A DNA stretch of 53,075 nucleotides, taken from assembly GCA_013141385.1 (NCBI GenBank), contig JABFRB010000017.1:1-53075 (forward strand), in the 5' to 3' direction. A model generated the notes under the pieces. It ran no database searches and was not told where the DNA came from. It was given only the letters and a program-made list of their open reading frames with translations. The stretch is from Bacteroidales bacterium (GTDB lineage Bacteria > Bacteroidota > Bacteroidia > Bacteroidales > Tenuifilaceae). How positions within the stretch are numbered: position 1 is the stretch's first letter; the number at the start of each line of letters is the position of its first letter. Shown in pieces: positions 5,376-26,540 of the stretch. The position numbers and the translations under genes are program-made.

Positions 5376-6560
5376 GTGGTCAAGTTTATTTTTTGGTTAT
5401 TCATTGGATTACTCATCTATAGCTATATTGGTTATACAATAATCATACTGTTTATATCTTTTATCAAGAAATTTTTCCCTTCAAATAGAGGCAGCAATAA
5501 GGAGAACTCAGCATCTAAATTTCCTGAGGTAACAATAATTATTGCCGCATACAATGAAGAGAAAAACGTTGACGAAAAAGTTAAGAATACCTTTCAACAG
5601 GACTACCCTCATGATAAAATAACACAGGTTTGGGTTAATGACTGTTCATTTGATAAAACTAAGGATCTGGTAGCAGAATACCCGAATGTTACCCTTTTAA
5701 ATCAAATCGAACGACAAGGGAAAGTTGCTGCAATAAATTTTGCAATGCAGTACGTTAAAACACCTATCGTTATTTTTTCGGATGCAAATGCCATGCTTTC
5801 AGCAGAAGCTATCAATAATATAGTTAAACCCTTCTCCAATCCTAAGGTTGGTTGTGTTGCTGGAGAAAAAAGAATCCTAATGAACCCCATTGAGAACGCT
5901 GCTGCCACAGGTGAAGGAATTTACTGGAAATACGAATCTTTTATCAAGCAAATAGAATCAACCTGTGGTTCTACACTTAGCGCAACTGGGGAACTTTATG
6001 CAATTCGAACTGAATTATTTGAAGAGGTTAAAAAAGATACCATACTCGATGATTTTATTATTTCAACCCATGTAATTAAAAAAGGATATTTGGTAAAGTA
6101 TGTACCTGATGCCTATGCTTGCGAAAAAGCCTCTGCAAATATTAATGAGGAAAAAAAGAGAAAAATTCGAATTGCAGCAGGAAGTTTTCAAGCACTTTTT
6201 AGAAGTATGGAGTTATTAAACCCACTTAAGCATCCTCTTTTCTCGTTCCAATTTTTTTCACACAAAATCTTAAGATGGTTTGTACTACCTATTTCCCTCC
6301 TGTTGCTGCCCATATTAAACGTGTTAATTCTCCTTTTATACAGTCAATCCACTATATATCAAGCAATTCTCATAATTCAGATATTCGTATTATTAATGAT
6401 TTTTTCGGGTTGGCTATTTAAAGATAAACAAATATCAACAAAATGGGTGTTTCTTCCTTTTTACCTTTTCATGATGAACATTTCAATTGTGCAAGGGTTT
6501 ATTCGCTATGTTAATGGGAAACAAAATGTAAAATGGGATAAATCCTTAAGACAAACCTGA
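5376..6560 (+). CDS. membrane-anchored family 2 glycosyltransferase
   Basis: This 394-residue protein has an N-terminal transmembrane segment (residues 4-29), a GT-A domain of family 2 (about 50-285) and a C-terminal membrane part with three to four helices (about 295-385). GT2 features are the opening VTIIIAAYNEEKNV, a DxD-like FSDANAML, the acidic ILDDFIIS around residue 228, and a K-x-R-I-A-A-G-S-F-Q segment standing for the QxxRW-type motif. Processive or semiprocessive enzymes have this architecture. The GTG start follows the preceding glycosyltransferase stop by two bases, so translational coupling is likely. The product is unknown; cell-surface glycan is the probable target. Confidence 0.85.
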   Translation: MVKFIFWLFIGLLIYSYIGYTIIILFISFIKKFFPSNRGSNKENSASKFPEVTIIIAAYNEEKNVDEKVKNTFQQDYPHDKITQVWVNDCSFDKTKDLVAEYPNVTLLNQIERQGKVAAINFAMQYVKTPIVIFSDANAMLSAEAINNIVKPFSNPKVGCVAGEKRILMNPIENAAATGEGIYWKYESFIKQIESTCGSTLSATGELYAIRTELFEEVKKDTILDDFIISTHVIKKGYLVKYVPDAYACEKASANINEEKKRKIRIAAGSFQALFRSMELLNPLKHPLFSFQFFSHKILRWFVLPISLLLLPILNVLILLLYSQSTIYQAILIIQIFVLLMIFSGWLFKDKQISTKWVFLPFYLFMMNISIVQGFIRYVNGKQNVKWDKSLRQT

Positions 6561-16630: not shown

Positions 16631-16714
16631 GCATTAAAATCCTTTCAACTCTTTCTTAAGTTTTTGCTTTTAATAGATGTTTTTTATATTTTGCCGTTTC
16701 AAAAAAAAGAAACC

Positions 16715-18904
16715 TTGATTAAAATTAAATTATATATCCTTTTCATTCTCGGTTCAGGTTTGATAAATATATCTGTGGCTCAACAGGCTATTTCGAGAAA
16801 CAAGATTGATAGCCTTCTAAAACTTACCAAGAGCGCTTCAGAAGAGAGTAAAGTAGTCATCTACAAACAAATATCAAGTTTTTACCAAGGAAAGAACAAC
16901 GACACTGTTTTCTATTATGCCAACTTATCTCTTGAATCAGCAAATATTGATAAGAGTGATAATAGTTTTTACGAAGCCTTCAAAAGTTTAGGCAACGCTT
17001 ATGCCGATAAGTTTGACTATGCCCATGCACTTGAATACTTTTTAAAATCGAAAGAGTATTGTAAAAAAGCCAATAACAAATCTAATATAATTGACATCCA
17101 AATTTTAGTTGGTAAAGCATACAGAAATATTAAAAGATTTAGTGATGCAATAGATTCTTATAAAGAGGCTTATGAAGTTGCAAAAGAAATTGGAGATTTT
17201 AATAATGAAGGCACTCTTCTTTTCAAAATTGCGAATGTATACTATGATATAAATGATTTAAATAAAGCCTTAGAATATGCAATAAAATCCGCAAACATAT
17301 TTATTGCCAATAATATAGAACTGGATAAAGCAAAGGCTTACAACTTTATAGGTTATGTGCATATGGTTTTAAAGAATAATGATCTTGCTGAAGAATACTA
17401 TGAAAAAGCTTATAACTTATATTTGAAGGGAAATGATTTAGTGGGGCTATCTGTGGCTCTTAATAATCTAGGAGTCATGTATAGTACCAATAAAAATAAT
17501 CAAAAAGCTATCGAATTTTATTCCAAATCGCTTGTTTACGCAAAACAGCAAAACGATGATGATGCTATATCCACCGCAATGAACAATATCGGAATGATTT
17601 ACGTTGAAATGGGAGAAATAGAAAAAGGACTTAAATACTATTTCGAATCGCAAGAATACAGCGTTAAACTCTTTGACAAAACTGGTTATATAAATACTTT
17701 CAACAATATTGCTGCTGCCTACCTACAAGCAGGCAACTTACAAAAGGCTAATGAGTATGTGAACAAAGCCCTTCCTTTTGCAGGGAAACTTACTGACCTA
17801 GCATATATTCAGGAATGCTACCAAATACTTTCCCAGATCTATTCTATGAAAGGAATGTTCAATAAAGCGTTTGAATATAAAAGTTTACAACTAGCCTATA
17901 ATGATAGCCTTTACACACGTCAGCAAACAAGTAGTATTCTTGAAATGCAAACCCGATTTGAAACAGTAGCTAAAGAAAAAGAGATTCAACTACTTAAAAA
18001 AGATAGAGAGATTGGCGTCCTTGAGGTTGAACGTCATAAAAGTTTTCAGAAATATTTAGTAATATTTTCTATTCTACTTCTTATATCAGTGATAATTTTC
18101 AGCCTAAGAATCAAACGAAAAAATAACTTACTCCTTTCAGTAAAGAATAGAGAACTTGAACAAATCAACAAAAAATTAATAGAATCTGAGCAAAATCTTA
18201 TAGAACTTAATGCCACAAAGGACAAGTTTTTCTCAATAATTGCTCATGATCTAAAAAATCCTTTCAACGCACTGCTTGGATTCAGCCAACTGCTCGAACG
18301 AAATTATGATACCTATACAAAGACCGAGATTAAAGAATATATCAACGTAATTTACGAATCATCTCAAAGCCTTTTCAAATTACTAGATAATTTACTTCAA
18401 TGGTCAAGAACTCAAACAGGTTCAATTACTTATAATCCAGAAATTTTTAATTTATTGCCAGTTATCAAACAGGAGATTACTTACCTTCAATTCTATGCTG
18501 ATAAGAAAAAAATCGCCATTAAAGTTACAGTCGATAGCACTATCTCTGCTTTCGCAGATAAAAATATTATATCAACAGTAATCAGAAACTTGATTAACAA
18601 TGCCATTAAATTCACAAATTCAAACGGTAAGGTCGAAATTAGGGCTGTTGAAACTATAAATGAAATCGAAGTATCAATTGCTGATACTGGTGTTGGCATC
18701 GATGTAGATGATTTAGAAAAACTTTTTCAGCTAAACAGCTCAATCTCAAATAAAGGAACAGCAAACGAAGAGGGAACTGGTCTAGGATTACTACTTTGCA
18801 AAGAATTCATTGAAAGAAACGGTGGAAGAATTTGGGCCAACAGCAATAAAGGTAAAGGAAGTACATTCTACTTTACATTACCAAAAGAAACAGCAATCAA
18901 TTAG
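16715..18904 (+). CDS. TPR-containing sensor histidine kinase (first of two)
   Basis: This protein of about 729 residues is a membrane sensor kinase with a periplasmic TPR sensor. It has an N-terminal signal (IKLYILFILGSGLINISVAQ), around seven TPR units at about 45-400, a short coiled coil, one membrane helix (YLVIFSILLLISVIIFSL, about 447-465), a second coiled coil and a HisKA/HATPase_c module. The phosphorylatable histidine lies in FSIIAHDLKNPFNALLGF, the N-box is NLINNAIKFTN, and the nucleotide boxes are DTGVGI and GTGLGLLLCKEF. No receiver domain or response regulator gene is near. The frame has no ATG near its start; I chose TTG 16715, which gives a clean signal peptide, over TTG 16664. 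Confidence 0.85.
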   Translation: MIKIKLYILFILGSGLINISVAQQAISRNKIDSLLKLTKSASEESKVVIYKQISSFYQGKNNDTVFYYANLSLESANIDKSDNSFYEAFKSLGNAYADKFDYAHALEYFLKSKEYCKKANNKSNIIDIQILVGKAYRNIKRFSDAIDSYKEAYEVAKEIGDFNNEGTLLFKIANVYYDINDLNKALEYAIKSANIFIANNIELDKAKAYNFIGYVHMVLKNNDLAEEYYEKAYNLYLKGNDLVGLSVALNNLGVMYSTNKNNQKAIEFYSKSLVYAKQQNDDDAISTAMNNIGMIYVEMGEIEKGLKYYFESQEYSVKLFDKTGYINTFNNIAAAYLQAGNLQKANEYVNKALPFAGKLTDLAYIQECYQILSQIYSMKGMFNKAFEYKSLQLAYNDSLYTRQQTSSILEMQTRFETVAKEKEIQLLKKDREIGVLEVERHKSFQKYLVIFSILLLISVIIFSLRIKRKNNLLLSVKNRELEQINKKLIESEQNLIELNATKDKFFSIIAHDLKNPFNALLGFSQLLERNYDTYTKTEIKEYINVIYESSQSLFKLLDNLLQWSRTQTGSITYNPEIFNLLPVIKQEITYLQFYADKKKIAIKVTVDSTISAFADKNIISTVIRNLINNAIKFTNSNGKVEIRAVETINEIEVSIADTGVGIDVDDLEKLFQLNSSISNKGTANEEGTGLGLLLCKEFIERNGGRIWANSNKGKGSTFYFTLPKETAIN

Positions 18905-18975
18905 CATCAAAGAGTCTTTGAATTAATTAGCATTTAATTTATCATTGATTCTTGTTAAATTCTAAAAAACCTTTA

Positions 18976-21858
18976 ATGAATTTTCAGAAAGTTCTTATAT
19001 TATCTTTTTTCATTAATATTTGTTTTGCAGGAAAGGTTCATCCGCAAAGCCAAATAAGAGTTGACAGCCTTCTTAAACAGGCAAACTTATTTATTACTGA
19101 AGATCCTCTAAAAACACAAACAATTTCTAGAGAGGCAATTTCAATCTCAAAGTCTATTAAAAATCAATTATTACTAATTGACTCATACCTTACATACGCT
19201 GAATCGTGCATAAATATTACCTCATTTAATGATGCGAAAAAATATATTGACTCCGCACTTGTACTATCAAAAAAGAAAAACCTCCCAAAACAATGGATTA
19301 ACTGCTTACTATTATCAAGCAGGATAGAAAGTGAAGCAGGTGAAGCAAGTCAATTCCTTAGGGTAATTTCTGAAGCTAAAAAACTAGCGAAAGAGAAAAA
19401 TATAACTGAGGATGAGGTAAGAATTGAGCTGTTAATTGGCGATTTTGATAAATCAACTGGTGATTTTGATAAATCAATTATCAGCAAAAGAAGAGCATTG
19501 GAAATTGCTACAAAAGTTATAAAGAAAAATCTTATTGCCGATTCTTGGAATAGCCTAGGTAGTACTTATTGGTATTTTAGTCATTTTCAAGAAGCACTTG
19601 AATGTTACTATAAATCATATATAATTAGAGAGGATGCTAAAGATACCATCGGGTTAATTGCATCGCTAAAAAACTTGGGTTTAGTTTATCGAGAGCTAAG
19701 TAATTTTGATAAAGCCATTAGCCAGTTGAACTTAGCATTAAAACTATCGGATGAGATTAAGAACAACGAAGAAACTTCAGAAGTTCTAAATCTTTTAGGT
19801 AGTCTCCATTTTCGCTTTAACCGATACAATGAGGCCATCCTATATTACAAACAAAGTTTAGACATTAAAAACAAAAGTGGTTTTATCATTTCCTCTGCAA
19901 ATACGCTTGAGAACTTAGCAAGAGTCTATTCGCAAAAATCAATGTTTGATGAAGCTTCAGAATCGCTTGATGAGGCTCTTAAAATCAGGGAAAGACTTCA
20001 GGATCAACTCGCAATCGCCTCAACGCTCAATGAGATGGGGAATCTCTATAATCAAAGAGGAAATATTGCCGAAGCGCTTAGAAGATACTTGATGTCACTT
20101 AAAATTAGGCAAAAAATCGGGAAAGATCAGGATATTGCTAAATCATTAACAAACATTGGGATAACCTACAGAAAGTTAGGCCTAACAAAAAATGCAACCA
20201 TTTATTTAGAGCAAGCAAGAAGATTAATTTCCGAAGGGAAAAACCCATCAGAAGCTGCATATGTTCTAGTCAACCTAGGAAATCTATATATCGACCAAAA
20301 ACAATATGATATTGCTTTAAAGATTTTTCAAGAAGCCCTCTCAATGAGAAAAAAGACAGGTGATGTTGCAAGTACTGCCAGAACAATTAGGAATATAGCG
20401 CAGGTTCAAATGCAAGTTGGGCAAATAGATCGAGCCAAGGACAACCTTAATCTCGCACTTAGTATCTCCCAAAAAATCAATAATGGTAAGGCCATTGCAG
20501 ACACCTATAATGACCTAGGAAATCTTGAACGTCAATCTGGTAATTTTCAAGTAGCAATTAAATACTTCGAGAATGCAATTAAGATTTATGATGAGTCTGC
20601 CAATTTTGATGGTAAAGGGCTATGTCTAAGAAAAATTGGTGAAATTCAAATTAAGTTGGGAACACTTGATGTTGCTGAAAAAAATATTGATAGATCAATT
20701 GCCATTGGTAAAGAAATTGGCAATATGGTTTTGATCGAATATGGTTACTTGGCTAAGCATGAATTCTATAAAGCAACTAACAACTATAAATTAGCACTAG
20801 ATTACTTTTCAAAACATATCAAAATTCGTGATAGTATAGACAACGCCCGAAAGAATGAGAAGAATCTTGAAGCCCAGCTCGATCTGGAACTCGACAAAAA
20901 GAAAGAAGAGATAAAATCGATGGAGGGAGAAGTTCAATACCTTAGGCAAGAGGCGCTTTTAAAAGAACTTGAACTTGAGAAGAAAAGGGTGTCGCAATAT
21001 ATTCTTATAGCATTTGGTATTCTAATATTAAGCCTCGCAAGTTTATCCTACCTTGGGTATTGGCAAAAGAAAAAACACAATAAAGTACTTGAAGAAAAGA
21101 TTATTACAATTCGCGAAACCAACGACAGACTATATCAATCAGAGGAAGCCTTAAAACTAAATGTTCAAACAAAAGATAAACTATTTTCAATTATCGCCCA
21201 CGATTTGAAAAGTCCCTTTAATGCCCTTGTTGGTTTAACCGAAATACTAAATCAAAAAGCAGGTAGTTTAAATCCAGATGAAATAAAGGAATACAGCCTA
21301 CATATCAATAAATCCTCGAACAAAGTTCTAACGCTTATCGATAGTCTACTTAACTGGTCAAGGAGTCAATCTGGTAAAATAAAATTAATCCCTGAAACCA
21401 TTAACATAAAGGAAGTTGCCGATTTGTGCCTTGAGGTAATTTCATTATCTGCAAAGGAAAAAAACATCACTATAAAATCGCGATTAAACAATACGGATGT
21501 AGCTTTTGCCGATAAGGAAACAATTACAACAGTAATAAGAAATCTCCTATCGAATGCAGTAAAATTTACCACAAAAAACGGGGAGGTAACAATCTGGGCT
21601 AATAGTAAAAATGAGGTGATTGAAATTTACGTTACCGACACAGGTGTTGGCATAAGTCGCGAGAATCAAACAAGACTATTTCAGGTAGATAAAAATATTT
21701 CAACAAAAGGAACTAATCAAGAATCTGGAACTGGGTTAGGATTAATTATTTGCAAAGAATTTATTGAAAAAAATAAAGGAAGTATAAGGGTTGAAAGTGA
21801 GTTGAACGTTGGAACATCTTTCATTATTACTTTACCAAATCATCCAATCAAAAACTAA
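18976..21858 (+). CDS. TPR-containing sensor histidine kinase (second of two)
   Basis: This 960-residue protein has the same design as its upstream neighbour and looks like a diverged paralogue with a larger sensor. A signal peptide (KVLILSFFINICFAGKVHPQ) precedes some twelve TPR units (about 55-620), then a charged coiled coil, a membrane helix (ILIAFGILILSLASLSYLGY, about 677-697), and HisKA/HATPase_c with FSIIAHDLKSPFNALVGL, NLLSNAVKFTT, DTGVGIS and GTGLGLIICKEF. All catalytic boxes are intact. No receiver domain is present. ATG 18976 is preferred over TTG 18952 because it begins the signal peptide. The gene ends 5 bases before xseB, so transcription surely continues into it. Confidence 0.88.
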   Translation: MNFQKVLILSFFINICFAGKVHPQSQIRVDSLLKQANLFITEDPLKTQTISREAISISKSIKNQLLLIDSYLTYAESCINITSFNDAKKYIDSALVLSKKKNLPKQWINCLLLSSRIESEAGEASQFLRVISEAKKLAKEKNITEDEVRIELLIGDFDKSTGDFDKSIISKRRALEIATKVIKKNLIADSWNSLGSTYWYFSHFQEALECYYKSYIIREDAKDTIGLIASLKNLGLVYRELSNFDKAISQLNLALKLSDEIKNNEETSEVLNLLGSLHFRFNRYNEAILYYKQSLDIKNKSGFIISSANTLENLARVYSQKSMFDEASESLDEALKIRERLQDQLAIASTLNEMGNLYNQRGNIAEALRRYLMSLKIRQKIGKDQDIAKSLTNIGITYRKLGLTKNATIYLEQARRLISEGKNPSEAAYVLVNLGNLYIDQKQYDIALKIFQEALSMRKKTGDVASTARTIRNIAQVQMQVGQIDRAKDNLNLALSISQKINNGKAIADTYNDLGNLERQSGNFQVAIKYFENAIKIYDESANFDGKGLCLRKIGEIQIKLGTLDVAEKNIDRSIAIGKEIGNMVLIEYGYLAKHEFYKATNNYKLALDYFSKHIKIRDSIDNARKNEKNLEAQLDLELDKKKEEIKSMEGEVQYLRQEALLKELELEKKRVSQYILIAFGILILSLASLSYLGYWQKKKHNKVLEEKIITIRETNDRLYQSEEALKLNVQTKDKLFSIIAHDLKSPFNALVGLTEILNQKAGSLNPDEIKEYSLHINKSSNKVLTLIDSLLNWSRSQSGKIKLIPETINIKEVADLCLEVISLSAKEKNITIKSRLNNTDVAFADKETITTVIRNLLSNAVKFTTKNGEVTIWANSKNEVIEIYVTDTGVGISRENQTRLFQVDKNISTKGTNQESGTGLGLIICKEFIEKNKGSIRVESELNVGTSFIITLPNHPIKN

Positions 21859-21863
21859 TTTGT

Positions 21864-22067
21864 ATGTCGAAGAAACAACTTACTTATAGTGAGGCTATAG
21901 CTGAAATTGAGTCAATTATTAGTAAAATTGAGAATCAAGAACTTGATATTGACGAACTATCAGCTAATGTCAAACGTGTAGCAGAACTTCTGAACTTCTG
22001 CAAATTAAAACTAAAGAATACTGAAGAAGAGGTGCAAAAAATTCTCAAAGAATTTGACGATAAATAA
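21864..22067 (+). CDS. xseB: exodeoxyribonuclease VII small subunit
   Basis: XseB is the small subunit that binds the helical region of XseA in exonuclease VII. The 67-residue protein shows the family pattern TYSEAIAEIESIISKIENQE followed by LDIDELSANVKRVAELLNFCKLKL, two helices of the right length. The unusual fact is its position: it starts 5 bases after a TPR-histidine kinase and is separated from xseA by two such genes, although xseA and xseB are usually adjacent or close. It converges on the SPASM maturase gene with only 17 bases between the stops. Confidence 0.92.
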   Translation: MSKKQLTYSEAIAEIESIISKIENQELDIDELSANVKRVAELLNFCKLKLKNTEEEVQKILKEFDDK

Positions 22068-22084: not shown

Positions 22085-23080
22085 TTATTCCCACTTGCCA
22101 GCGTAAGGATTATAATTACATTTTCTAGGTTTATCAAATATATCATCCACAAATGCTCTGCAATCACTACATATGTATCTATACTCACAATCCTTACATA
22201 TATGTATGTGATCTTTTGTGATTGACCAATACTTAGAAAATTCTTGTGTTTTTATTATTTTCCCAATACTATCACCGTTATTTACATTTCCATAACTATA
22301 ATTGAATGCTGGACAGTTCTTTATGTTTCCATTGGAATCGATAGATACCTTTTTATTTAAGCATGTATTAAAGTGCTGTGCTTCAGTAAATGTATCAATA
22401 TTTAGAGTAAACTTATCAATATCTATTTCTCCACAATCGTTACATGTTTTGATTACTTTTTTTGAATAAACAATTTTATCATTAAATGATTTTTCATTCT
22501 TGGGACTTGAATGAATTGAAACTACACCAATATTTGTAAATTCAGAAAATAATTTGTTTTCGTTTATATCATTCTCAATATTCTTATAATACTTTATAAT
22601 GATATCAATATTTCTAAATATCTTATTGTTAGTATGATGAAGAATTTCACATAAATCACAAATACGTAAAATATCAAATGATCGTATCTCAATAAACTTA
22701 CATTTTAATTCATCTAATTCATTGAATATCTTGCCATAGTCGTGCTTTGAGTTCTTATCAATATCTACTATTGCATTATTTATCAATTCAGGACATTCAA
22801 ATTTTAGGTTTAAATCAGGGAAATTTTTAATTTCAGATATATCGCACCAAAATCCGCATTCGTTATTTTCTAAAAATTCAAAGTACTCATCTATAAACCG
22901 ATGGTTTTCTTTGTCGTAATTGCGCTTAATCTCTGAAATTCCTTTGTTTTTATAAACAGTTAGTATTTCATATAAAACTTCCGGAATATTAATGAACTCT
23001 GCTCTTTGTAGATCACAAATTATATAATTGGTAAAACCTTTAACAGGTATGCAGCAAGCAAATAATTTAAAAATATCCAT
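22085..23080 (-). CDS. gwsS: SPASM-domain peptide maturase of a grasp-with-spasm system
   Basis: This 331-residue protein resembles the SPASM-domain maturase that accompanies an ATP-grasp enzyme in grasp-with-spasm RiPP operons. The C-terminal SPASM region is cysteine-rich: NTCLNKKVSIDSNGNIKNCP, then HICKDCEYRYICSDCR and a final KCNYNPY, enough for auxiliary iron-sulfur clusters. A TIM-barrel-like middle is suggested, but I find no canonical radical-SAM CxxxCxxC motif; the only N-terminal partial match is CGFWC near residue 75. Chemistry is therefore uncertain. The gene is the last of a minus-strand set with the precursor peptide, the ATP-grasp enzyme and a small ORF whose stop is 10 bases upstream. 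Family identity is from motif recognition. Confidence 0.8.
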   Translation of the reverse strand: MDIFKLFACCIPVKGFTNYIICDLQRAEFINIPEVLYEILTVYKNKGISEIKRNYDKENHRFIDEYFEFLENNECGFWCDISEIKNFPDLNLKFECPELINNAIVDIDKNSKHDYGKIFNELDELKCKFIEIRSFDILRICDLCEILHHTNNKIFRNIDIIIKYYKNIENDINENKLFSEFTNIGVVSIHSSPKNEKSFNDKIVYSKKVIKTCNDCGEIDIDKFTLNIDTFTEAQHFNTCLNKKVSIDSNGNIKNCPAFNYSYGNVNNGDSIGKIIKTQEFSKYWSITKDHIHICKDCEYRYICSDCRAFVDDIFDKPRKCNYNPYAGKWE

Positions 23081-23090
23081 TTTCTATCCT

Positions 23091-23267
23091 TCAAAATATT
23101 TTAGAAATCGGTTTTTGTGGATACTTACAAACTGAATAATTTGTTTGATAGAAATCGCTCTTGACAAATCTATTAGGGCTACTATTTTGTAGTTTTATTC
23201 TCTTTAATAGTGAATGAGCATTAACAGGTAATTCTTTCACCAATAATCTCTTAACATTCTTATCCAT
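23091..23267 (-). CDS. small unrecognised protein inside the grasp-with-spasm operon
   Basis: A 58-codon frame fills the gap between the ATP-grasp and SPASM genes almost completely. It begins with ATG at 23267, overlapping the ATP-grasp stop by 8 bases, and ends 10 bases before the SPASM gene start, so coupling in one operon is likely. The product starts MDKNVKRLLVKELPVNAHSL, is basic, contains one cysteine (SVCKYP) and has no signal peptide, membrane helix or GG leader end. I do not recognise a family. It could be a leader-binding or scaffold partner of the maturases, a second atypical substrate, or a fortuitous frame; the tight packing favours a real gene. Confidence 0.5.
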   Translation of the reverse strand: MDKNVKRLLVKELPVNAHSLLKRIKLQNSSPNRFVKSDFYQTNYSVCKYPQKPISKIF

Positions 23268-24246
23268 TATCCTGAGAAATTAAATGTTTAGCTATTTCCT
23301 TTTCCAAATAATAGTTACATGGCTCAGAAACCATTCCAAACTGCCCTGCTGGGTTGATTTCTAAAAAAATATAATTCCCAACTTTATTTTTAATCATGTC
23401 TATGGAACCAGTTGTCAAATGAAGGTTTTGCATCAATAGAATTATCTTTTTCTCAATATCTCTGGGTAGTTTATACGGAACAAATCTATTTGGTTTATCC
23501 TCGTTGTAGTTGCGAAAATCAATTTTCGTTCGTTTATCACTCTGAGAAAATATTGCCATGGAATAGCATTTTTTATTCAAATAAAAAATTCTAATTTCAT
23601 ACCTTTTTTCAACTAATTTTTGAAAAAATGAAGGGGGAAATTCATCCGGAAGACCTAATATCTTCCTCTTAGATATAACATTTGTAATAGAGGTATAATA
23701 ATTTCGCTCATCAAAAAAGAATAATGGGTCATTAAGGTCTTTAGAAATAATTTTTTTATGAGTATTAAAAAATTTGATCAGGTCCTTCCTTGTGGAACAT
23801 ATTTTAGTTTCTGGTATATTAAGTCCCACTTTGCTTGCTTCAACTAATACATGAATTTTGTTTAATGCTATTTTTGAAGGATGAGATAACCATTTTTTCT
23901 TATTCAAATACTTAAATAATAATTCTCTTAGAGATATTATGTTACTTGATTGATAAAAGATTAACTGATCCATAATAGAATAATCTATTTCACTATTGTT
24001 ATACAGATCGTAAAAATCTCTATCCAACCATCTTCTAAACCAAACAAAACTTATTTTGCCAAAAGGAATTTCGATATCCTTATATTTAATCAATAGTTCT
24101 GAATTATCCAGAGAGATTTCAACATTGCCTTTTTGGGAAAATTCATCACCATTAATTCGAATAAAAAATTTTCCAAAAAAAACAATCCAATCAATTACTT
24201 CCTCTGTGGAAAGTTCTGCTTTTTCTTTTGATATTATCAATATCAT
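23260..24246 (-). CDS. gwsG: ATP-grasp peptide maturase of a grasp-with-spasm system
   Basis: This 328-residue enzyme resembles the ATP-grasp ligases that make omega-ester or omega-amide crosslinks between side chains in graspetides (microviridin-like peptides). Features are the N-terminal domain with VWFRRWLDRDFYD, the central nucleotide-binding region (KKIISKDLND), the substrate-side strand YEIRIFYLNKKCYSMAIFSQ followed by KIDFRNYNEDKPNRFVPY, and the Mg-binding end FLEINPAGQFGMV with the E-x-N pair. Length is normal for the family. It lies 80 bases downstream of a precursor peptide gene and overlaps a small ORF that leads to the SPASM gene. It should activate acidic side chains of the core peptide by phosphorylation. 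Confidence 0.88.
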   Translation of the reverse strand: MILIISKEKAELSTEEVIDWIVFFGKFFIRINGDEFSQKGNVEISLDNSELLIKYKDIEIPFGKISFVWFRRWLDRDFYDLYNNSEIDYSIMDQLIFYQSSNIISLRELLFKYLNKKKWLSHPSKIALNKIHVLVEASKVGLNIPETKICSTRKDLIKFFNTHKKIISKDLNDPLFFFDERNYYTSITNVISKRKILGLPDEFPPSFFQKLVEKRYEIRIFYLNKKCYSMAIFSQSDKRTKIDFRNYNEDKPNRFVPYKLPRDIEKKIILLMQNLHLTTGSIDMIKNKVGNYIFLEINPAGQFGMVSEPCNYYLEKEIAKHLISQDNG

Positions 24247-24271
24247 TTTAGAAACAAGATCCCTTTTTAAA

Positions 24272-24313
24272 TTTTAAGAGGCGTGCTCTAAAGAATAAAC
24301 ACGCCTCTTAAAA
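24272..24313. promoter_or_regulatory. perfect 14-bp hairpin between precursor and maturase genes
   Basis: TTTTAAGAGGCGTG at 24272-24285 and its exact reverse complement at 24300-24313 enclose a 14-nt loop. It lies between the precursor peptide stop and the ATP-grasp start on the minus strand. No pure U-tract follows, so it may be a partial terminator or an mRNA-stabilising element that keeps peptide message above maturase message; this role is inferred. Confidence 0.7.
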
Positions 24314-24326
24314 TGATTCTTTGACA

Positions 24327-24491
24327 TTAAACAGGATCGATGGAGGTTGGATCTCCTCCTCCGTCATATTGTCCGTCGCATAAGGTCAGAGTTCGGGCAA
24401 GCCCGCCTTGAATTTTCTTTAATTCTTTTTTTCCAAATTTTTTAGCATCCCTGATGCTTTCAAAATTTTTCTTGCATACAGTTTTTTTCAT
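24327..24491 (-). CDS. RiPP precursor peptide with GG-type leader
   Basis: A 54-residue peptide is encoded just upstream of the two maturase genes. The leader starts MKKTVCKKNFESIRDAKKFG, is rich in Lys and Glu, and ends KKELKKIQGG, the typical leader end of Bacteroidota double-glycine natural product precursors. The predicted core has 24 residues, begins LARTLTLC and ends PTSIDPV. It holds hydroxyl residues (Thr, Ser), four aspartates, a tyrosine and a cysteine but no lysine, so ester crosslinks between Thr/Ser and Asp are the natural expectation for an ATP-grasp enzyme. A -7 box lies 29 bases upstream. No C39-type export protease gene is in the window. Confidence 0.82.
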   Translation of the reverse strand: MKKTVCKKNFESIRDAKKFGKKELKKIQGGLARTLTLCDGQYDGGGDPTSIDPV

Positions 24492-24519: not shown

Positions 24520-24527
24520 CAAATATA
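24520..24527 (-). promoter_or_regulatory. putative -7 box of the grasp-with-spasm operon
   Basis: The minus strand reads TATATTTG, matching the Bacteroidota -7 consensus TAnnTTTG, 29 bases before the precursor start. A correctly spaced -33 TTTG was not found, so this is a partial match. Confidence 0.4.
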
Positions 24528-24687: not shown

Positions 24688-26540
24688 CTAATCCAACTTC
24701 ATTTTTCTAGGTTTGATCATATTCTCCGGTTCCAATATTTGATCTAACTGCTCTTTTGTTAGAAGTTTTTTCTCAAGTACTAACTCATATACACTTCTAT
24801 TATTCAATAAAGCTTCTTTTGCCAAACGGGTTGAAGTTTCGTATCCTAAGAAAGGGTTTAACGCTGTTACGAGCCCAATACTATTGTATACCATCATACG
24901 GCAACGTTCTTCATTTGCAGTTATCCCATCAATACAACGATACTTTAAAGTGTTCATCCCATTCTTAAGCATTTCAATGGATTCGAATATACTTTGAACA
25001 ATAACTGGCTCAAAAACATTAAGTTCCAGTTGACTGCTATTGTTACTGTTAAATCGTTTCCAATTACCTTAAAAGCAACTTGATTAACCACCTCGGGTAT
25101 TACAGGGTTTACCTTTCCCGGCATAATTGATGATCCCGGCTGCATTGGTGGCAAGTTTATTTCATTGATACCTGTTCTTGGTCCGGATGAGAGTAACCGT
25201 AAATCATTACAAATCTTCGATAACTTTACAGCTAAACGTTTAACCGCCGAAGAGTACATAATAAATGCACCTGTATCCTGTGTTGCTTCTACTAAGTTAG
25301 ATGCTAAAACAATATCTAAACTTGTTATTCTTCTTAGGTGTTTAATGACCAAATCGGTATAACCAGGTTCTGAGTTAATTCCCGTTCCAATTGCAGTTGC
25401 TCCCATGTTAACCTCTAGGAATAACCTAACATTCTGGTTTAAGCGCTCAACCTCCTCCTTCAAAGTTACAGCATACGCTTCGAATTCTTGCCCTAAGGTC
25501 ATAGGTACAGCGTCCTGTAATTGTGTACGTCCCATTTTAATGACATGAGAAAACTCCTTTGCTTTATTCCTAAATGATTCAACTAACGTTTCGAGCACTA
25601 AAACTAACTTCTTATTTGAGTTTATTAACGCTATTTTTACTGATGTAGGATATGCATCATTTGTTGACTGGGATAGATTTACATGATTATTAGGATGGCA
25701 ATAATCATATTCACCTTTTTCATGTCCTAATAGTTCAATAACTCGATTTGCGATAACCTCATTTGCATTCATGTTTGTAGAGGTTCCAGCACCACCCTGT
25801 ATCATATCTACAACAAAGTGATTATGATACTTCCCATTTCTAATCTCCTGACATGCAAGCACTAAAGCACCCTTAATCTTCTCATCAATTAATCCAAGAT
25901 CGTAATTTGCTTCTGCAGCAGCCTCTTTAACCATTGATAGTGCATCAATAAGCGTAGGAAATAAATTTAATGTAACCCCAGAGATATTGAAATTTTCAAT
26001 AGCTCTAAGAGTTTGAATTCCATAGTAGTACTCAAATGGAACATCCCTTTCGCCTAGTAGATCGTGTTCTCTTCTTGTTCTTCCCGATTCATATTGTGCT
26101 GCTGGGTTAACCATCCTGCTATTTACACTACGCATTCTGCGTGATATAACCCTAGCAATATTTGAGAAAATTTTCAGGGTAGTATCGGCACTTTTATTAA
26201 AAAAATCCCTATTAATTGCTAAAACAGTTGTTGGCTGTAATGCCCTTGCTGTTGTAGAATGAGGGGAATCATTTGCCCATGAACCTTCGCCCAGAAAATC
26301 TCCCTTTCCAAAAAGAGTTAGCCTTGTTTCAACCCCATAAGTATTACTCTTAAAAAGTTCTACCTCGCCAATGTAGATTATAAAAATATCTTCTCTTGGC
26401 CCATTTTCACGAAAAAGGAGATCATTAGGAACATACTTCTTTTCCTTTACACTTTTGGATAATTCTTTAAGTTCATTCTCATTTAAATCCCTAAAAAGCT
26501 CTATTCTTTTCAAGAATAAAAGAGTTTCGTTTAGTTCCAT
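24688..26540 (-). pseudogene. aspA: cNMP-binding domain fused to aspartate ammonia-lyase, frameshifted
   Basis: The gene encodes an N-terminal cyclic-nucleotide-binding domain (about 1-145, with [26 protein letters not shown] as the phosphate cassette region in pieces) joined to an aspartase/fumarase-type lyase from about residue 160. Aspartase converts aspartate to fumarate and ammonia. The lyase motifs are strong: [29 protein letters not shown] and the catalytic loop [12 protein letters not shown]. At 25030-25036 the conserved AEAG residues before [10 protein letters not shown] are lost: compared with the family about 10 bases are missing, shifting the frame. The rest continues in the next frame to 24688 (ITANEERCRMMVYNSIG, LEKKLLTKEQLDQIL). 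The residual 528-residue product would lack the C-terminal domain. It may be a recent inactivation or an assembly error. Confidence 0.85.

What the first reader, a model, noticed from the sequence alone, without database searches (positions are those of the whole stretch)
22085..24491. Compact grasp-with-spasm RiPP operon with a clear but easily missed precursor gene
Seen: a 54-residue peptide with a leader ending KKELKKIQGG and a 24-residue Asp/Thr/Ser-rich core, followed by an ATP-grasp enzyme, a 58-codon ORF and a SPASM protein, all on one strand. Family knowledge: ATP-grasp maturases of this type (TIGR04192/TIGR04193 class, as I recall) make omega-ester or omega-amide bonds. Inference: the core is crosslinked by ATP-grasp and also modified by the SPASM protein, giving a two-enzyme natural product. 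Core composition (four Asp, no Lys, one Cys, one Tyr) predicts esters and leaves Cys or Tyr for the second enzyme.
Basis: partly seen in the sequence, partly recalled or inferred. Interest (0 to 1): 0.82.

Follow-up and report, generated by a model that had tools for sequence, protein, structure and literature searches.

The report
Graspetide operon with pseudo-radical-SAM partner
A bacterium of the Bacteroidota carries a four-gene operon that very probably makes a small ring-closed peptide; it belongs to a catalogued but uncharacterised family, and its supposed radical enzyme appears to have lost the radical chemistry and may instead be a peptide-handling adaptor.

Summary
Observation confirmed: on the minus strand lie a 54-codon GG-leader precursor, an ATP-grasp ligase (TIGR04192, 301 bits, cut-off 230), a 58-codon ORF and a SPASM protein (TIGR04193, 293 bits, cut-off 175), all under purifying selection against relative L034. 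The system is a known kind, the 'branch 5' graspetide loci of Makarova et al. 2022 (PMC8939145), and the 58-codon ORF is their 'LPL family'. Modification of Cys/Tyr by the SPASM protein is not supported: CxxxCxxC was found in none of 125 members (one is a fragment starting past the site), the core Cys is not conserved, and of 45 HMM-found members 15 lack all ligands of auxiliary cluster I and one lacks those of both clusters, with ATP-grasp and small ORF kept in 15 of these 16 loci. AlphaFold and Foldseek suggest RRE-like domain, degenerate barrel and SPASM domain. One Acidobacteriota MAG has a natural LPL-SPASM fusion. Best reading: SPASM protein plus LPL are a precursor-presenting adaptor for the ATP-grasp. 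New member of a known kind.

The parts
24327..24491 (-). Precursor peptide gene, 54 aa; leader 24402-24491 ending in GG, core 24330-24401
   Evidence: ORF; homologue in L034 with dN/dS 0.19; no match over a cut-off in NCBIfam or Pfam (best are ComC-type hits, E 0.23 and 0.074)
24520..24527 (-). TATATTTG, a Bacteroidota-type promoter -7 element (consensus TAnnTTTG recalled, not from a call)
   Evidence: Read in the sequence; lies in a 30-nt block identical in L034 (sequences printed, compared by eye)
24271..24314 (-). Hairpin in the RNA between precursor and ATP-grasp, perhaps an attenuator or processing signal that keeps precursor expression above enzyme expression (function inferred)
   Evidence: Fold of 24247-24326: -26.9 kcal/mol, z -5.87; counterpart in L034 -24.3 kcal/mol, z -7.29
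23260..24246 (-). ATP-grasp graspetide ligase (TIGR04192)
   Evidence: 301.3 bits, cut-off 230; PDB sequence relatives 7m4s (AMdnB), 7mgv (CdnC), 5ig9 (MdnC), 5ig8
23091..23267 (-). LPL-family small protein, 58 aa, motifs ELPVN..SLL and QKPISKIF
   Evidence: Position and motifs shared with related loci; dN/dS 0.11; no Pfam or NCBIfam match for the window protein
22085..23080 (-). SPASM protein (TIGR04193): N-terminal RRE-like domain (about residues 1-80, nt 22841-23080), degenerate radical-SAM barrel, SPASM domain with eight cluster cysteines (216, 240, 256, 307; 295, 298, 304, 321)
   Evidence: 293.1 bits, cut-off 175; no CxxxCxxC; AF2 mean pLDDT 95.3; Foldseek 5WHY, 5V1S/5V1Q, 5V1V

Best explanation
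This is a complete minimal biosynthetic operon of the grasp-with-SPASM (graspetide branch 5) type. Most likely mechanism: (1) the SPASM protein binds the precursor's GG-type leader through its N-terminal RRE-like domain; (2) it does no radical chemistry, because the motif for the SAM-binding [4Fe-4S] cluster is gone, and its SPASM clusters serve mainly as structural staples; (3) the LPL protein docks on the SPASM protein (its KPISK tail is the best candidate for the contact) and couples it to the ATP-grasp, perhaps standing in for the activating leader helix that other graspetide ligases need; (4) the ATP-grasp activates Asp side chains and joins them to Thr/Ser, giving up to three omega-ester rings among T6, T19, S20 and D13, D17, D22; (5) leader removal happens in trans, since no C39 peptidase (PF03412) is on this contig. 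Shown: gene identities, conservation, absence of the radical-SAM motif, near all-or-none loss of cluster I ligands, a natural LPL-SPASM fusion. Inferred: leader binding, docking, activation, ester bonds, cleavage in trans.
For: Families over cut-off. No CxxxCxxC in 81 of 81 and 45 of 45 (L135 is a fragment starting past the site); as a positive control a radical-SAM/SPASM protein in the same genome shows CNFACPYC (L143). AF2 model, mean pLDDT 95.3; Foldseek best hits 5WHY (sactipeptide maturase, CteB; E 4e-8) and SuiB, which carry a leader-binding RRE (names and RRE recalled), and TbiB1 with leader (5V1V, E 0.033, TM 0.65 by target). Among 45 proteins taken by HMM (window included), cluster I/II cysteines are 4/4 in 29, 0/4 in 15 and 0/0 in 1, none partial. 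Of the 16 cluster-I-less loci, 15 keep the ATP-grasp and a small ORF in the LPL place; for the 16th, L135, none was found. A profile of the LPL family over 395 genomes: 18 of 21 matches lie beside TIGR04192 and TIGR04193 matches; the other 3 are the three weakest. Natural fusion in L037; in its AF2 model the stretch leading into the LP motif (block 11-20, mean pLDDT 75) and the KPIS motif (block 51-60, 76) stand out from neighbouring blocks at 40-58. Residues that bind the leader in MdnC (Glu191, Asp192, Asn195; PMC7823629 passages) align with R194, K195, G198 in the window.
Against: 109 of 126 proteins in the combined set keep all eight SPASM cysteines (80 of the 126 rows were found with a pattern that contains two of them), which suggests that the clusters do something where kept. 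Cys10 is in 81 of 81 of set A2 and unexplained. The LPL tail lysine and cluster I go together in raw counts (K/R in 93 of 104 with cluster I, 2 of 15 without), but on the tree there are only 2-3 independent pairs, so the link is not established. LPL sides with the ATP-grasp in two loci (L006, L047) and with SPASM in one (L045), so the partner is ambiguous. The LPL profile is insensitive: it found LPL in 15 of the 35 sampled genomes with a TIGR04193 match and missed the own-genome copy on C41. In the fusion model half of the LP motif (19-25) falls in a block of mean pLDDT 55. MdnC's acidic leader-binding positions are acidic in 29 of 71 and 21 of 71 related ATP-grasps, in a gapped stretch, so that site is eroded but not erased in the family. 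Foldseek superposition of whole chains is loose (rmsd about 11 A), and the RRE match alone is weak. Docking was not modelled; coordinates and error maps of the models were not available.
Confidence: 0.55

Rival explanations
1. Two-enzyme product (the first reader; Makarova et al. also treat the protein as a radical SAM enzyme): ATP-grasp makes esters and the SPASM protein makes a second C-C, C-O or C-S crosslink on Cys or Tyr.
For: All eight SPASM cysteines kept in 29 of 45 HMM-found members and 109 of 126 overall; Tyr12 conserved with L034; fold closest to radical-SAM peptide maturases; 23 of 33 related loci with a recognised GG candidate have a Cys in a core.
Against: CxxxCxxC in none of 125 proteins (one is a fragment starting past the site); cluster I ligands wholly absent in 15 of 45 and both clusters' in 1 of 45, with ATP-grasp and small ORF kept in 15 of these 16; core Cys not conserved; 10 of 33 loci have no Cys in any candidate core.
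Confidence: 0.15
2. The SPASM protein is a redox or Fe-S chemistry enzyme of an unknown non-radical type, using the auxiliary clusters (and perhaps Cys10 and Cys127) for catalysis.
For: Cluster II ligands kept in 44 of 45 HMM-found members; Cys10 in 81 of 81 and Cys127 in 74 of 81 of set A2.
Against: One member (L017) lost the ligands of both clusters yet its locus keeps the ATP-grasp and LPL; Cys10 is Ile or Val in L004-L006, L012, L018 and L144, and Asn in L017.
Confidence: 0.15
3. LPL acts on the ATP-grasp alone as a trans-acting leader (mimic of the PFFARFL helix), and the SPASM protein is a separate step.
For: The LPL motif resembles Phh[x1-2]h, as Makarova et al. noted (PMC8939145 passage); LPL abuts the ATP-grasp and is parted from SPASM by another open frame in L006 and L047.
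Against: The natural fusion is to the SPASM protein (L037); in L045 the ATP-grasp is on the other strand while LPL stays before SPASM; the acidic leader-binding residues of MdnC are R and K in the window and only partly kept in the family.
Confidence: 0.25
4. LPL, not the GG peptide, is the substrate.
For: Small, in nearly every locus, conserved tail with Ser and Lys.
Against: No GG cleavage motif in the consensus; each of the three own-genome loci has a separate GG peptide; LPL is fused to the SPASM protein in L037.
Confidence: 0.05

Closest known systems
Branch 5 graspetide loci with LPL family and SPASM protein, Makarova et al. 2022 (PMC8939145; seen: abstract, section 6 part 1 of 3, section 7, search passages)
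   Same: Bacteroidota; ATP-grasp, SPASM protein (TIGR04193), LPL protein before SPASM, GG precursor before the ATP-grasp
   Different: They call the SPASM protein a radical SAM enzyme and suggest LPL is a PqqD analogue; here the radical-SAM motif is absent and the protein appears to have its own RRE-like domain. They report a cluster 23 protein in almost all branch 5 loci; this operon holds only the four genes (cluster 23 itself was not searched for).
Group 14 graspetides, Carter et al. 2026 (PMC13097080; seen: abstract, section 7, search passages)
   Different: Whether this locus falls in their group 14 was not tested; no member is characterised in what I saw
Rosaritide MirB/MirC (same paper, abstract and passages)
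   Same: A graspetide synthetase that needs a partner protein
   Different: The partner there is a PPIase-like chaperone, not a SPASM or LPL protein
Radical-SAM RiPP maturases CteB (5WHY; name recalled) and SuiB (5V1S)
   Same: Best Foldseek matches of the predicted model; domain order RRE, barrel, SPASM recalled
   Different: They carry the SAM-binding cluster (recalled); this family lacks its motif
MdnC (5IG9) and 5IG8 (MdnB, recalled) microviridin ligases
   Same: ATP-grasp homologues by sequence
   Different: Leader-binding acidic residues are R and K in the window and only partly kept in the family

Membership tests
Grasp-with-SPASM ATP-grasp (TIGR04192) | Score over curated cut-off | tested here: met
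   301.3 bits, cut-off 230
Grasp-with-SPASM SPASM protein (TIGR04193) | Score over curated cut-off | tested here: met
   293.1 bits, cut-off 175
Branch 5 LPL family | Small protein with LPL motif directly upstream of the SPASM gene | tested here: met
   58 aa with ELPVN, 10 nt before SPASM; profile and position shared with related loci. The published family alignment itself was not available.
Graspetide | Core with hydroxyl or amine donors and acidic acceptors, next to an ATP-grasp | tested here: met
   T6, T19, S20 and D13, D17, D22 conserved (T19 as Ser) in L034, the one close homologue
Graspetide | Omega-ester or omega-amide bonds formed | not testable with these tools
   Needs expression and mass spectrometry
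GG-Bacteroidales leader models (TIGR04149, TIGR04139) | Profile match of the precursor | tested here: not met
   No such match at E <= 1 in NCBIfam
Radical SAM superfamily | CxxxCxxC SAM-cluster motif | tested here: not met
   0 of 81 and 0 of 45 (one fragment starts past the site)
SPASM domain | Seven-cysteine motif and two auxiliary clusters | tested here: met
   Seven motif cysteines plus C216 in the window; CX2CX5CX2C here, CX2CX5CX3C in PMC5715301 (passages); TIGR04085 32.4 bits, cut-off 27. Cluster binding itself not tested.
RRE domain | PqqD-like fold that binds leader peptides | tested here: inconclusive
   Four strands and three helices at the N terminus; Foldseek to TbiB1 with leader, E 0.033 (aligned range in the model not shown); binding not testable
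Microviridin-type leader recognition | MdnC Glu191/Asp192/Asn195 and a PFFARFL leader | tested here: not met
   R194, K195, G198 in the window by alignment; family partly acidic there, 29 and 21 of 71; no PFFARFL in the precursor

The most novel reading that the evidence does not exclude
The largest of the poorly characterised graspetide groups of the 2022 survey uses a dead radical-SAM protein as a leader-binding scaffold: the SPASM protein and LPL form an adaptor that presents highly diverse precursors to one ATP-grasp, separating recognition from catalysis and explaining why closely related ligases serve unrelated precursors.
Probability: 0.4. Interest if true: 0.7.

Novelty: new member of a known kind. 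Interest (0 to 1): 0.5.

Why it matters
The survey that describes these loci (PMC8939145) treats the SPASM partner as a radical enzyme and so expects further modifications such as thioethers. If it is a scaffold, product predictions for the group change to esters or amides only, and the four genes become a compact partner-dependent ring-forming system whose recognition part can be tested directly. The nearly all-or-none loss of cluster I ligands across the family offers natural variants for testing what the clusters do.

Tried and rejected
Profile comparison of the SPASM alignment with the radical-SAM protein L143 gave nothing, and the SPASM profile has no PDB sequence match, so the fold assignment rests on AF2 plus Foldseek. 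The idea that loss of cluster I and loss of the K/R in the LPL tail co-evolved looked strong in raw counts (Fisher p 2.7e-9), but the tree needs only 3 changes of cluster I and gives 2-3 independent pairs (sign test median p 1), so I do not claim it. In that count 26 of 119 loci were coded by hand (24 as lacking K/R, 2 as having it), the other 93 were set to K/R because a pattern matched or by eye, and 7 of 126 were left out (L006, L037, L068, L111, L112, L135, L153). An earlier automatic coding mis-picked the ATP-grasp tail in several loci and was dropped. LPL as a match to any known family: none for the window protein, and single-member hits at E 0.004-0.008 only among 59 members. A first mixed alignment for the fusion model put LPL rows into the SPASM part and was not used. 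The precursor pattern recognised candidates in 33 of 80 loci only. Two automatic LPL picks were wrong genes (L037, L047) and were corrected by reading frames.

A caution on counts: the 80 loci were found with a pattern over two cluster II cysteines, so cluster II conservation is biased in that set; the 45 proteins are the window and 44 HMM-found matches whose loci were delivered, not every match listed. L059 and L124 are identical proteins; L011 and L135 are incomplete.
Full report
What is there. Four genes lie on the minus strand between a convergent xseB-like gene (21864-22067) and an aspartate ammonia-lyase-like gene (24688-26540): a 54-codon precursor, an ATP-grasp ligase, a 58-codon ORF and a SPASM protein (the xseB and aspA labels are my reading, not from a family search). 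The ATP-grasp scores 301.3 bits against TIGR04192 (cut-off 230) and the SPASM protein 293.1 against TIGR04193 (cut-off 175); the precursor has only sub-cut-off ComC-type hits and the 58-codon ORF has none. A strong hairpin sits between precursor and ATP-grasp (z -5.87; -7.29 in relative L034), and a TATATTTG element lies upstream in a 30-nt block identical in L034 (sequences).

Are the ORFs real. A Bacteroidales MAG (L034) has the same four genes, and its SPASM protein is 87% identical. dN/dS is 0.19 for the precursor, 0.17 for the ATP-grasp, 0.11 for the small ORF and 0.12 for the SPASM protein. The two precursors share T6, Tyr12, D13, D17, a hydroxyl at 19, S20 and D22; the window's Cys8 and Asp9 are not shared. 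L034 is the only close homologue of the precursor that I have; no wider search with the precursor was made beyond the own genome.

The 58-codon ORF. In 77 of the 80 loci an ATP-grasp lies within 1.5 kb upstream of the SPASM gene (not in L045, L068, L112). An LPL-type frame is visible in 79 of 80: 76 gave an automatic pick (66 with the K-[PSNHCQR]-[IVYF]-[STCIV] tail pattern; two of the picks, L037 and L047, were wrong genes; the other eight without the pattern show close variants by eye), and reading the frames found the true one in L037 (fused), L047, L110, L112 and, interrupted by a stop, L111; L068 begins at the contig edge. In the 59-row alignment P14 is kept in at least 90% of rows, and the majority consensus of the tail is YKPISKI. 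A profile of it, run over 395 genomes, gave 21 matches in 18 genomes; 18 lie beside TIGR04192 and TIGR04193 matches, and the three that do not are the weakest. Two of the 18 are the window's own genome, and one (G523) carries the same small protein as L059, a row of the profile, so this is only partly independent. The profile is also insensitive: it found LPL in 15 of the 35 sampled genomes with a TIGR04193 match at E <= 1e-15 and missed the own-genome copy on C41. Makarova et al. 2022 (PMC8939145) already named this the LPL family and suggested a PqqD-like role. They report that unrelated small proteins take the place of LPL in some loci; the shared tail motif suggests to me that some of these may be one family, but I did not test their loci.

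The SPASM protein. CxxxCxxC was found in 0 of 81 members (a looser search before residue 216 was also empty) and 0 of 45 in the HMM-found set (the window is in both sets, and L135 is a fragment that starts past the site). A radical-SAM/SPASM maturase in the same genome has it (CNFACPYC, L143). The AF2 model is confident (mean pLDDT 95.3) and its best PDB matches are 5WHY and SuiB, with the small TbiB1-leader complex next. SPASM cysteines partition as in anSMEcpe (ligands read in passages of PMC5715301): cluster I 216, 240, 256, 307 and cluster II 295, 298, 304, 321. In the 45 HMM-found proteins they are 4/4 in 29, 0/4 in 15, 0/0 in 1 and never partial; in the 126-protein set 109 are 4/4, one 3/4, 15 are 0/4 and one 0/0. 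Of the 16 loci without cluster I ligands, 15 keep the ATP-grasp and a small ORF in the LPL place; for L135 neither was found (in L018 and L132 the automatic pick lacks the motif and another frame fits better). The loss needs only three changes on the tree, so these are few events in many rows.

How it probably works. The SPASM protein has lost the motif that makes a radical SAM enzyme, and the family tolerates loss of one or, once, both auxiliary clusters, so a scaffold role fits better than a second modification. Its N-terminal domain looks like a leader-binding RRE, and LPL is fused to it in L037. In the AF2 model of that fusion the stretch leading into the LP motif (11-20) and the KPIS motif (51-60) are better ordered than their neighbours, though half of the LP motif lies in a block of mean pLDDT 55; this is consistent with docking but does not show it. 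LPL can also stay with the ATP-grasp when another open frame parts it from SPASM (L006, L047), so a bridging role is my best guess. In the window the MdnC residues that bind the PFFARFL leader are replaced (R194, K195, G198), in the family they are partly kept (acidic in 29 and 21 of 71; contacts from PMC7823629 passages), and the precursor lacks that motif, so recognition probably runs differently. No C39 peptidase lies on this contig; six matches lie elsewhere in the genome. Other transporters were not searched for.

Literature. 'grasp-with-spasm' gave no paper, 'TIGR04193' one, SPASM with graspetide three, SPASM with ATP-grasp and radical SAM three, SPASM domain with CX3CX2C and lacks two (on PqqE and an archaeal lipid enzyme by their titles). 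Of these I saw PMC8939145 and PMC13097080 in abstract, sections and passages, PMC5715301 and PMC7823629 in passages, and the others in listings only. In what I saw, none states that the SPASM partner lacks the radical-SAM site. The library holds only open-licence papers, so this is no proof that it is unreported; the NCBIfam name avoids 'radical SAM', which suggests its curators may have known.

Verdict. The operon is a new member of a known, uncharacterised kind. The interest lies in the revision: the partner thought to be a radical enzyme is probably not one, and the system may be partner-dependent in the way rosaritide is (PMC13097080, abstract and passages).

Noticed in passing
L140 (C16:188000-199500 of the own genome) and L141 (C41:56000-68000): Two further grasp-with-SPASM systems in the same genome, each with its own GG peptide, an LPL-type ORF and a gene with a signal-peptide-like start upstream of the ATP-grasp that the window's operon lacks. 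The C41 SPASM gene is followed by a 535-codon protein with a C39-like match.
   Followed up: partly
L143 1441-3045: A radical-SAM/SPASM maturase (CNFACPYC) with a GG peptide in the same genome; its leader weakly resembles the window's (E 0.285).
   Followed up: partly
window 22085-23080, protein residues 10 and 127: Cys10 in 81 of 81 and Cys127 in 74 of 81 of set A2, outside the SPASM cluster sites; role unexplained.
   Followed up: no
L006 and L047: Another open frame lies between LPL and SPASM, with LPL staying next to the ATP-grasp.
   Followed up: partly
L037 5695-6999: Natural in-frame LPL-SPASM fusion of 435 aa in a Thermoanaerobaculum MAG (Acidobacteriota).
   Followed up: yes
L111 about 5711-6000 and L011: LPL frame of L111 holds a stop; SPASM frame of L011 is interrupted by stops. 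Pseudogene or sequence error not decided.
   Followed up: no
window 24688-26540: The aspartate ammonia-lyase-like gene, with an N-terminal cyclic-nucleotide-binding-like part, is split over two overlapping frames (labels are my reading); real frame break or assembly error not decided.
   Followed up: no
window 16664-21858: Two tandem TPR-repeat histidine-kinase-like genes on the other strand next to the operon (labels are my reading).
   Followed up: no
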